Shown: positions 20,821-22,788 of the stretch, piece by piece | Layout of the letters: every line of letters begins with the position of its first letter | How positions within the stretch are numbered: position 1 is the first letter of the stretch | Assembly (NCBI RefSeq): GCF_029210375.1 | Contig: NZ_JARGER010000006.1 | Location: forward strand, 1-64,000 | Length of the DNA stretch: 64,000 nucleotides | Source of the DNA: Nocardioides sp. YIM 152315 | GTDB taxonomy: Bacteria > Actinomycetota > Actinomycetes > Propionibacteriales > Nocardioidaceae | Reading direction: 5' to 3' | Translations under genes and position numbers: made by a program | The notes under the pieces: model-generated | Database searches by the model: none | What the model saw: the letters and a program-made list of their open reading frames with translations, nothing else | What the model was told of the DNA's origin: nothing

Positions 20821-22788
20821 ATGCCACAGCACTACCCCTTCAGCGCCGTCGTCGGCTCGGATGAGCCGGGCGGCATGGCGCTCGCGCTGATCCTGACCAC
20901 GATCTCCCCCGACATCGGCGGAGTGCTCGTCCGCGGGGAGAAGGGCACCGCGAAGTCGACCATCGTCCGCGCCCTCGCCGCCGTCCTGCCGCCGATCGAC
21001 GTCGTGGCCGGCGACCGGTTCTCCAGCGACCCGCGCGACCCGGAGCCGCTCTCCCCCGACGGCCCGTTCGCCGCCGACGCACCGGTGGAGTCCCGCCCGG
21101 TGCGGCTCGTCGAGCTCCCCGTCGGCGCCACCGAGGACCGCGTGCTCGGGTCGCTGCACCTCGAGCGCGCGCTCGCGGAGGGCCGCACGGAGTACGAGCC
21201 CGGCCTGCTCGCCCGCGCCCATCGCGGGATCCTCTACGTCGACGAGGTGAACCTGCTCCACGACCACCTGGTCGACCTGCTCCTCGACGCCGCCGCCATG
21301 GGCCGGTCGAGCGTCGAGCGCGACGGCGTCTCGGTCTCCCACGCGGCCCGCTTCGTCCTCGTGGGCACCATGAACCCCGAGGAGGGCGAGCTCCGCCCCC
21401 AGCTCCTCGACCGGTTCGGGCTCACCGTCGAGGTCGCGGCGCCGCGCGACCCGGTGACGCGGGTGGAGGTCGTACGCCGCCGGATGGCCCACGACGCCGA
21501 CCCGGACGGCTTCGCGGCGTCGTACGCCGACGCCGAGCGCTCCCTCACCGAGCGCATCGCCGCCGCCCGGGAGCGGGTCGCCGAGGTCGCGCTGTCGGAC
21601 GCCTCCCTGCTGCGGGTCGCCGAGCTGTGCGCGGCGTTCGAGGTCGACGGGATGCGCGCCGACATCGTCACCGCCCGCACCGCGGTCGCCCACGCGGCGT
21701 GGCACGGCCGCGACGAGGTCACCACCGAGGACATCCGCGCCGCCGCGCGCCTGGCCCTCCCGCACCGGCGGCGCCGGAATCCGTTCGACGCCCCCGGACT
21801 CGACGAGGACCTGCTCGACGAGGTGCTCGGCGACGAGCCGGACCCCGAGCCGGACCCGGATCCGGGCGGGCCCGGTGGCGGTGGTTTCGAGACAGGCGCT
21901 AGCGCGCCTTCCTCAACCACCGAGGGCGTGCCTTCCTCAACCACCGAGCCCACCGAGAGCGCACCGTCCTCGACCGCCACGGTCGGCAGCGGCACGCCGT
22001 ACCGCGCCCGCCTGCTCACCGCCCGCGGCACCGGCGTCGGCGAGGCGGGGCGGCGCAGCCGCGCGCTCACCGACAACGGCCGCCGGCTCGGGACCTCGAC
22101 CGAGGGTCGGGGCTCCCTGCACCTCCCGGCGACGGTCCGTGCGGCCGCCCCCCACCAGGTCGCTCGCGGCCGCACGGGCGGGGCGCTCCGACTGCTGCCC
22201 GGCGACCTGCGCCGGGCAGCCCGGGAGGGGCGCGAGTCCAACCTCGTGCTCTTCTGCGTGGACGCCTCGGGCTCGATGGCGGCGCGCAAGCGGATGGAGC
22301 AGGTCAAGACCGCGATCCTGTCACTGCTGCTCGACGCCTACCGGCGGCGCGACAAGGTCGGGCTGGTGACCTTCCGCGGCGACGCCGCGGATCTCGCGCT
22401 GCCGCCCACGCACTCCGTCGACGTCGCCGCCACCCGCCTCGACGCCCTTCCTGCCGGCGGGCGGACGCCGCTCGCGGCGGGACTACTGGAGGCCGCGCGA
22501 GTCCTCGACCGCGAGCGGATCCGCGACCCGCGACGCCGGCCGCTGCTGGTGGTCGTGACCGACGGACGGGCGACCGCCGGGCCCGACGCGGTGGCCCACT
22601 CGCGCCGCGCGGCCGAGCTGGTCGCCGGCACCGGCACGAGCGCCGTCGTCGTCGACTGCGAGACCGGGCCGCTCCGTCTCGGGCTCGCCGCCGTGCTGGC
22701 CGAGCACCTCCGCGCCGAGCACCTGCCGGTCGCCGAGGTCAGCGCCGAGGCGCTCACCGACGTGGTGCGCGTCGGACGGGCCGCCTGA
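20821..22788 (+). CDS. Putative cobaltochelatase, ChlI-ChlD (AAA plus VWA) fusion
   Basis: A 655-residue chelatase motor that should work with CobN to insert cobalt into hydrogenobyrinate diamide, replacing the separate CobS and CobT of proteobacteria. The AAA+ half has Walker A VRGEKGTAKST (about 38-48), Walker B GILYVDEVNLLHDH (about 136-149) and a sensor GTMNPEEGELRPQLLDRF. After an acidic proline linker comes a VWA domain with the MIDAS start FCVDASGSM (about 479-487) and an LVVVTDGRAT motif. The linker contains an in-frame palindromic repeat encoding FETGASAPSSTTE (about 356-368). The ATG at 20821 follows the riboswitch; a longer frame would run through it. The stop overlaps cobO. Confidence 0.88.
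   Translation: MPQHYPFSAVVGSDEPGGMALALILTTISPDIGGVLVRGEKGTAKSTIVRALAAVLPPIDVVAGDRFSSDPRDPEPLSPDGPFAADAPVESRPVRLVELPVGATEDRVLGSLHLERALAEGRTEYEPGLLARAHRGILYVDEVNLLHDHLVDLLLDAAAMGRSSVERDGVSVSHAARFVLVGTMNPEEGELRPQLLDRFGLTVEVAAPRDPVTRVEVVRRRMAHDADPDGFAASYADAERSLTERIAAARERVAEVALSDASLLRVAELCAAFEVDGMRADIVTARTAVAHAAWHGRDEVTTEDIRAAARLALPHRRRRNPFDAPGLDEDLLDEVLGDEPDPEPDPDPGGPGGGGFETGASAPSSTTEGVPSSTTEPTESAPSSTATVGSGTPYRARLLTARGTGVGEAGRRSRALTDNGRRLGTSTEGRGSLHLPATVRAAAPHQVARGRTGGALRLLPGDLRRAAREGRESNLVLFCVDASGSMAARKRMEQVKTAILSLLLDAYRRRDKVGLVTFRGDAADLALPPTHSVDVAATRLDALPAGGRTPLAAGLLEAARVLDRERIRDPRRRPLLVVVTDGRATAGPDAVAHSRRAAELVAGTGTSAVVVDCETGPLRLGLAAVLAEHLRAEHLPVAEVSAEALTDVVRVGRAA
21880..21948. repeat. 42-bp palindromic repeat in frame in the chelatase linker, with an extra half copy
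   Basis: A full 42-bp unit (21880-21921), from GGTGGTTTCGAGAC to CTCAACCACC with a GGCGCTAGCGCGCC centre, is followed by a partial right half ending at 21948. It is read as GGFETGASAPSSTTE. The 42-bp sequence is identical to the unit at 33528-33569. It falls exactly in the low-complexity linker between the AAA and VWA domains. Confidence 0.85.

What the first reader, a model, noticed from the sequence alone, without database searches (positions are those of the whole stretch)
21880..21948. Protein-coding palindromic repeat inside the ChlI-ChlD chelatase linker
A 42-bp imperfect palindrome is read in frame as GGFETGASAPSSTTE between the AAA and VWA domains, with an extra half copy. The same unit occurs in two more cobalamin genes in the same reading frame. 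Other frames contain stops or change meaning, so frame retention suggests selection for tolerated insertions, like the Rickettsia palindromic elements that enter genes. I do not know this described for cobalamin genes in this group.
Basis: partly seen in the sequence, partly recalled or inferred. Interest (0 to 1): 0.75.

Follow-up and report, generated by a model that had tools for sequence, protein, structure and literature searches.

The report
Hairpin repeats that become protein linkers
A short hairpin-shaped DNA repeat scattered through this actinobacterial genome also sits inside 15 protein genes, where it is read in just two of its six possible frames, both giving a soft and predicted disordered stretch, so likely mobile DNA seems to have been built into working enzymes as linker material.

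Summary
The palindrome is real and is not private to ChlID. It is one copy of a dispersed hairpin family: 110 full units in the 88 stretches examined; reversed-pattern controls gave 1 and 0 hits against 112 and 136. Units have fixed outer arms and mostly matching inner stems of several types. They stand alone, in tandem, or in inverted pairs that always combine two stem types (22 of 22), like E. coli BIMEs. The REP transposase domain (Y1_Tnp) was found in none of the 147 genus genomes searched, this one included.

I place 16 of 70 classifiable clusters inside genes (15 confident). In all 15 the unit is read as GGFETG..SSTT (sense) or VVEEGALAPVSKP (antisense): expected 6.7, P = 4e-6. With relatives 22 of 23; with nothing dropped 24 of 29. 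Eleven of 15 sit between domains or at a terminus (ChlID, CofGH, E2, SpoU and others).

The CobN loop, ChlID linker and CofGH linker carry such palindromes, of several families, in other species too (15 of 30, 6 of 25 and 10 of 28 loci, own genome included). In-gene REPs are already described in other phyla: a new variant of a known kind.

The parts
20818..22788 (+). chlID-type fused AAA-VWA chelatase gene (host of the reported unit)
   Evidence: start at the ATG of MPQHYPF is inferred
21880..21921 (+). type A unit (42 bp), read as GGFETGASAPSSTT, sense frame 1
21922..21945 (+). 24-bp tandem copy of the unit's 3' half, read as EGVPSSTT
21946..21981 (+). possible third, degenerate half copy (PTESAPSSTAT); weak
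   Evidence: by eye
32759..33628 (-). cobF-like tetrapyrrole methylase gene; inferred GTG start overlaps the cobN stop (GTGA)
33528..33569 (+). type A unit, antisense to cobF, read as VVEEGALAPVSKP (antisense frame 2)
33578..33616 (-). type B unit (39 bp), sense to cobF, read as GGFETGLRPSSTT; tail-to-tail pair with the type A unit
33625..37296 (-). cobN-like cobaltochelatase gene (stop-to-stop frame; start not fixed)
36754..36795 (-). type A unit read as GGFETGAGAPSSTT in a variable loop of CobN
46..114 (+). degenerate copies near the contig start, not shown to be inside a gene

Best explanation
The 42-bp palindrome is one copy of a dispersed family of hairpin units of the REP/BIME kind, and its copies inside genes are likely insertions that survived only where the host protein tolerates an extra loop and where the unit is read in one of two frames that encode a soft, predicted disordered peptide. 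Shown: the copy number, the fixed outer arms with inner stems that mostly match in several sequence types, the pairing rule, scarcity in genes, the two-frame restriction, the linker or loop positions, and the absence of the insert from most orthologues compared. Inferred: that the units move as DNA by an enzyme not identified here (no Y1_Tnp gene found), that insertion is roughly blind to frame, and that purifying selection removes harmful insertions. Inferred too: the retained peptide then evolves as ordinary linker, growing by half-unit tandem duplication and losing the palindrome. Certain linkers and loops (CobN loop, ChlID linker, CofGH linker) act as repeated landing pads for several palindrome families across the genus.
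For: Copy number and controls. Inner stems changed on both sides: AGGCGC/GCGCCT, GGGAC/GTCCC, GGTTGC/GCAACC, GGTCGC/GCGACC, AGGAC/GTCCT. Inverted pairs 22 of 22 hetero-stem, random mean 12.4, 0 of 20000 draws as high. In genes 16 of 70 classified clusters. Sense 1 begins at codon position 1 and antisense 2 at codon position 3, so one insertion phase does not give both. Positions by Pfam. Solved homologues of CobN, HyuA and E2 align with gaps in the insert. CobN loop: 15 of 30 loci with palindrome arms of several families. CofGH linker: 10 of 28 parsed loci. ChlID linker: 6 of 25 parsed loci, plus L003 and a decayed copy in L301. AlphaFold2 model of the CobN fragment: residues 123-131 of the insert (119-132) under pLDDT 50. 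CobF and NarJ keep a start codon overlapped with the upstream stop, with the units between start and core in frame.
Against: No empty site at DNA level in a very close strain was found, so insertion boundaries are inferred from protein alignments. In the biotin carboxylase the two best solved homologues align through the unit without a clear gap, so there the unit is not shown to be extra residues. No target-site duplication was seen at 55 single units, so the mode of movement is unknown. One doubtful in-gene copy (GNAT, C27:47167) reads sense frame 2, and three flagged own clusters and one relative cluster that I judged not to be in genes read other frames. In other palindrome families the 5' arm is read in another frame (VVSRL.. 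in L273 and L275), so the two-frame rule is shown only for the GGTTTCGAGAC family. Some inner stems do not match (GCTCGC..GCTCGC). On the CobN tree the labels are only weakly clustered (shuffles as low in 14 of 200), and the window's copy and its best match G010 are not sisters. Loci for CobN, ChlID and CofGH were the best 30 matches, not a random draw.
Confidence: 0.85

Rival explanations
1. The peptide is useful: linkers made of these palindromes are favoured by positive selection (exaptation), not merely tolerated.
For: Several species keep GGFETG..PSSTT plus a half copy in the ChlID linker (window, L302, and a variant in L003), and decayed forms stay open and hydrophilic (L300, L301). The same linkers are hit again and again.
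Against: Many orthologues do without (15 of 30 CobN loci show no arm), and the labels change often on the CobN tree (at least 12 changes for six labels), as expected of tolerated insertions.
Confidence: 0.15
2. The frame bias comes from target-site preference of the inserting enzyme (a motif that in GC-rich genes falls in one codon phase), not from selection on the peptide.
For: The base after the unit is G in 98% of 110 units and the base before is C in 61% of 109, so some site preference or a longer unit is possible.
Against: The two frames used correspond to different codon phases at the insertion point, and units are scarce in genes (16 of 70), which itself points to selection. The outer C..G may simply be the last base pair of the unit.
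Confidence: 0.1
3. The hairpin is kept for an RNA- or DNA-level role (attenuation, mRNA stability, supercoiling) and its coding is incidental.
For: Stems that match in several sequence types, many copies between genes, and a cob region rich in RNA regulation (three cobalamin riboswitches).
Against: It does not explain why in-gene copies avoid the open sense-2 frame, nor why probably older copies (L300, L301, L003) lose much of the palindrome but keep an open frame.
Confidence: 0.08
4. These are classical REPs moved by a resident RAYT (Y1 transposase).
For: Size, hairpin with bulges, inverted heterotypic pairs and mostly non-genic location fit REP/BIME.
Against: No Y1_Tnp match in 147 genus genomes including the own one, 49 of which carry the exact arms; the same search found it in 5 of 14 control genomes.
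Confidence: 0.05
5. The peptide is ancestral ChlID sequence that happens to be palindromic.
For: N. lijunqiniae (L003) and some genus genomes share it.
Against: The same kind of unit recurs 110 times in the fetched stretches, and 79 of 80 named ChlID loci lack this peptide.
Confidence: 0.01

Closest known systems
Intragenic REPs / REP-decorated proteins (Di Nocera et al. 2013, PMC3733652; abstract, sections 6 and 15 and passages read)
   Same: Short (20-40 bp) palindromes in many copies, mostly intergenic, often as inverted dimers, some inside genes encoding extra residues; different REPs in two Xanthomonas recB genes lie at about the same site; the CGTC class also lacks a dedicated transposase.
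   Different: Their REPs are sorted by a GTAG or CGTC tag; I recognised no such 5' tag here. The words Actinobacteria and Nocardioides do not occur in that main text. The parts I read give no frame test, and name only the recB pair as hit at one site.
Rickettsia palindromic elements (RPE; Ogata 2000, 2002, known to me through passages of PMC10969869 and PMC2229807)
   Same: Palindromic DNA read in frame inside unrelated metabolic genes, tolerated at protein level.
   Different: RPEs are about 105-150 bp and from Rickettsia; these units are mostly 39-42 bp, build heterotypic pairs, and read as flexible S/T/G/E/P-rich peptide from either strand.
BIME of E. coli (recalled)
   Same: Inverted pairs combining two stem types.
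   Different: Different sequence; no Y1 transposase domain found in the 147 genus genomes searched.
MITEs (PMC10969869, passages)
   Same: Small, hairpin-forming, dispersed, no transposase of their own.
   Different: No target-site duplication at 55 single units, and no parent transposon identified.

Membership tests
REP (repetitive extragenic palindrome) | 20-40 bp imperfect palindrome in high copy | tested here: met
   94 of 110 units are 39 or 42 bp (range 34-43), at the upper edge of the size
REP (repetitive extragenic palindrome) | Mostly outside genes | tested here: met
   54 of 70 classified clusters not placed inside a gene
REP (repetitive extragenic palindrome) | 5' GTAG or CGTC tag (Di Nocera 2013) | tested here: inconclusive
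   No GTAG; CGTC or TGTC appears beside the inner stem on the antisense strand but not as a 5' tag; judged by eye
REP (repetitive extragenic palindrome) | Associated RAYT (Y1_Tnp) transposase | tested here: not met
   0 of 147 genomes, controls positive in 5 of 14
BIME / REPIN | Inverted pairs of units at short distance | tested here: met
   14 tail-to-tail (5-14 bp) and 8 head-to-head (17-19 bp) pairs; 22 of 22 hetero-stem
RPE (Rickettsia palindromic element) | Read in frame inside many unrelated genes | tested here: met
   15 confident host genes
RPE (Rickettsia palindromic element) | 105-150 bp element of Rickettsia | tested here: not met
   34-43 bp; the two named ChlID records of highest identity are Nocardioides
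MITE | Target-site duplication | tested here: not met
   55 single units, 2-9 bp, not above shuffles
MITE | Terminal inverted repeats shared with an autonomous transposon | not tested
   No search for a parent transposon beyond Y1_Tnp was made

The most novel reading that the evidence does not exclude
In Nocardioides several families of mobile palindromes act as ready-made linker cassettes: their arms are tuned so that the frame on either strand that survives in genes writes a disordered, hydrophilic peptide, and a transposition system without a Y1 transposase keeps re-seeding the same linkers of CobN, ChlID and CofGH, making these DNA parasites the main source of loop diversity in those enzymes.
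Probability: 0.3. Interest if true: 0.82.

Novelty: new variant of a known kind. Interest (0 to 1): 0.62.

Why it matters
It extends protein-coding palindromes to an actinobacterial genus, gives a frame test for selection on such insertions, and names loops where several palindrome families land repeatedly, so gain and loss of a linker can be followed across about a hundred species. It also points to a REP/BIME-like family spreading in a genus where no Y1 transposase domain was found, which makes the open question of what moves such repeats testable.

Tried and rejected
Ancestral protein sequence: rejected by the dispersed copies and by 79 of 80 named ChlID loci. RAYT mobilisation: no Y1_Tnp match. 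Target-site duplications: none. Rfam at gathering thresholds: only cobalamin riboswitches in the window. A first regular expression for the ChlID linker found nothing because it was wrong and was replaced by an alignment. Covariation of outer pair 7 over exact-arm units in the fetched stretches was weak (T-A in 90 of 105), although the class-level listing shows genomes whose listed units have C-G at that pair; I rely on the inner stem. Solved structures of the CofGH homologues did not cover the linker. Literature: searches listed no paper on this family. The sequence-string search returned 37 papers, 15 listed, none by title about a dispersed bacterial repeat like this one; REP + Nocardioides gave one off-topic paper; REPIN + RAYT + Actinobacteria gave none.

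Rows dropped before counts. Own genome: 200 of 248 arm hits were listed and used. 21 clusters with an arm but no full unit (11 of them flagged in-gene, probably chance matches) were not counted. 11 of 81 unit clusters were at contig edges. Of 16 clusters flagged in-gene, 3 were dropped by judgement (a 30-aa frame; a copy upstream of a likely start; an implausible frame). CobF, methylmalonyl-CoA mutase and NarJ, which the script had put among 15 clusters coding on both sides in another frame or with a stop, were added on reading; a DapC-like aminotransferase case, where the unit may supply the GTG start, was left out as ambiguous. Relatives: 80 of 107 listed clusters were fetched, and with the single loci I examined 98 loci, giving 104 classified clusters, 9 flagged in-gene; 2 were dropped (a 28-aa frame; a copy upstream of a likely start). 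The relatives' 17 clusters coding on both sides in another frame were not re-read for N-terminal cases. With nothing dropped the frame test is 24 of 29, P = 4.1e-6. The coding fraction of 0.88 used for a depletion estimate was assumed, not measured, so I give no P for depletion.

Full report
What is there. The window lies on contig 47 of a 4.82-Mb genome in 50 contigs. Of 80 named ChlID loci the two highest identities are Nocardioides (76% L033, 72% L003), though only 7 of the 80 titles are Nocardioides; I treat the genome as Nocardioides-like. At 21880-21921 stands GGTGGTTTCGAGAC-AGGCGCTAGCGCGCCT-TCCTCAACCACC, followed by a 24-bp repeat of its 3' half, in frame inside a fused ChlI-ChlD-type gene. 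Near copies lie in the CobN-like gene and, as an inverted pair with a 39-bp partner, at the start of the CobF-like gene.

The family. In the genome the 5' arm occurs 112 times (reversed control 1) and the 3' arm 136 times (control 0) at up to one mismatch. From the 200 of these 248 hits that were listed I fetched 88 stretches, which hold 110 full units. Lengths are 42 bp (70), 39 (24), 41 (11) and others (5). Three stem types make up 109 of 110: A (AGGCGC/GCGCCT, 66), B (GGGAC/GTCCC, 24) and C (GGTTGC/GCAACC, 19). In relatives further stems appear, again with both sides changed, such as GGTCGC/GCGACC and GGCCG/CGGCC, together with non-matching ones such as GCTCGC..GCTCGC. The base after the unit is G in 98% of units. 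Inverted neighbours come tail-to-tail (14 pairs, 5-14 bp apart) or head-to-head (8 pairs, 17-19 bp); all 22 combine A with B or C, while all 6 tandem pairs are A+A. Random pairing gives 12.4 hetero pairs on average and never 22 in 20000 draws.

Spread. The exact arms occur in 49 of 147 genomes of the genus, with 0 hits for the reversed pattern in all 147. In a class-wide sample a slightly wider pattern occurs in 14 of 394 genomes and 3 of 137 genera: ten of this genus, two of one genus of the same family (141 and 7 copies), and two single hits in another family. The Y1 transposase family PF01797 gives no match in the 147 genus genomes, although the search finds it in 5 of 14 control genomes. 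No target duplication is seen at 55 single units. What moves the units is therefore unknown.

In genes. With a codon-usage score on 180-bp flanks, 70 of 81 unit clusters could be classified; 11 are at contig edges. Sixteen were flagged as inside a gene. After reading them I dropped three and added CobF, whose right flank is cobN, which left 13 confident and one doubtful (a GNAT protein). A re-reading of the 15 clusters coding on both sides in another frame added two N-terminal cases, methylmalonyl-CoA mutase (MTVPKSFSGLSLD-unit-GGGDHTW) and NarJ (MRAR-unit-ETRTRVV), and one ambiguous case, a DapC-like aminotransferase whose GTG start may lie in the unit. That makes 15 confident, 16 of 70 with the doubtful one. 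Hosts by Pfam: a ChsH2-like OB-fold protein, an MFS transporter, a type I restriction subunit, a SpoU methylase, a CofGH-type radical SAM protein, a 2-oxoacid dehydrogenase E2, an amine oxidase-DUF1365 fusion, a biotin carboxylase, a secreted glycoamylase-like protein, ChlID, CobF, CobN, hydantoinase A, methylmalonyl-CoA mutase and NarJ. By Pfam boundaries 11 of 15 lie between domains or at a terminus; MFS, HsdR, CobN and HyuA lie within or beside a domain.

Frame. Each in-gene unit has three to six open frames. With the two N-terminal cases it is 15 of 15 (expected 6.7, P = 3.6e-6). In genus relatives 7 of 7 agree (P = 1.4e-3). With the doubtful GNAT copy the total is 22 of 23 (P = 5.6e-8); with nothing dropped it is 24 of 29 (P = 4.1e-6). 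Not all rows are independent: the CobN copies of window and L194 share a site, and L260 gives two rows. Sense 1 writes GGFETGASAPSSTT or GGFETGLRPSSTT and antisense 2 writes VVEEGALAPVSKP; the open but unused sense 2 writes VVSRQALARLPQP. The two used frames put the unit at different codon phases, so a single insertion phase does not explain them.

CobN. In the best 30 genus matches the site is a variable loop. Fifteen carry recognisable palindrome arms: three of this family (the window; L270 with C-G in place of T-A; L271 with the 39-bp type B unit), six labelled as a GGTTTCGAGGCTCG-type family, some of them decayed, four of a GGTCTCGACACG-type family, one antisense family and one half unit. 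The other 15 show none by these patterns and many have short loops. On a tree of CobN without the loop, these labels need at least 12 changes. A solved CobN (7c6o) aligns with a 10-residue gap within the insert, and an AlphaFold2 model of the 216-residue fragment gives pLDDT under 50 for residues 123-131 of the insert (119-132; mean of the model 70.9). For HyuA and E2 the solved homologues also align with gaps there; for biotin carboxylase they do not.

ChlID and CofGH. In ChlID, of 30 genus loci 25 were parsed and 6 show arms (window; L300 sense plus antisense; L302 sense plus half copy; L304 antisense then sense; L313 half; L328 another family); L301 has a decayed copy. Of the 80 named loci, only N. 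lijunqiniae L003 shows this family's peptide. In CofGH, of 30 loci 28 were parsed and 10 show arms of several families, the own genome included. The peptide GLDTPPPSGSGGST of the GGTCTCGACACG family stands in CobN (L279, L280), ChlID (L328; GPDT.. in L007) and CofGH (L359, L361), so at least one further family is also read the same way in three genes.

CobF. In two Streptomyces loci the cobF start overlaps the cobN stop (ATGA, GTGA). The window has the same GTGA overlap, with the paired units between the start and the enzyme core, in frame. This supports insertion into the N-terminus, though a downstream start cannot be excluded.

Known work. In-gene REPs are described in other phyla (PMC3733652; abstract, sections 6 and 15 and passages read), including two recB genes hit at about the same site. 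Rickettsia palindromic elements in genes are described in passages of PMC10969869 and PMC2229807. My searches listed nothing on this family. I therefore call it a new variant of a known kind: it works like intragenic REPs and RPEs, is REP/BIME-like in build, and is not shown to be a member of the tagged REP classes or of RPE.

Noticed in passing
whole genome G000: 21 of 100 contig ends lie within 250 bp of a listed element arm, though such ends cover about 0.5% of the genome, so arrays of the element probably break the assembly.
   Followed up: partly
window 14737-14922 (+), 20638-20786 (+), 37253-37361 (-): Three cobalamin riboswitches (RF00174) stand in this cob region.
   Followed up: no
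window 6405-6590 and 19875-20060: A 186-nt stretch is repeated at 94% identity with no Rfam match at gathering threshold; unexplained.
   Followed up: no
L031 (Propionibacteriaceae MAG), ChlID linker: The linker is built of repeats around TCGACAAGCTC, read as PSTSSE/PSTSSG and the like, so an unrelated repeat seems to have entered the same linker in another bacterial family.
   Followed up: partly
L260: An APS kinase-LMW phosphatase fusion carries units in frame before the kinase domain and between the two domains.
   Followed up: partly
L270 versus window CobN: 83% identical over the 216-residue fragment and with the same unit type, yet not sisters on the CobN tree; recombination is possible.
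   Followed up: no
L124, C27:46138-46177: A unit lies just before a DapC-like aminotransferase and may supply its GTG start codon, in antisense frame 2.
   Followed up: partly
L016, ChlID linker: Linker made of tandem copies of DAPGRQDDETP.
   Followed up: no
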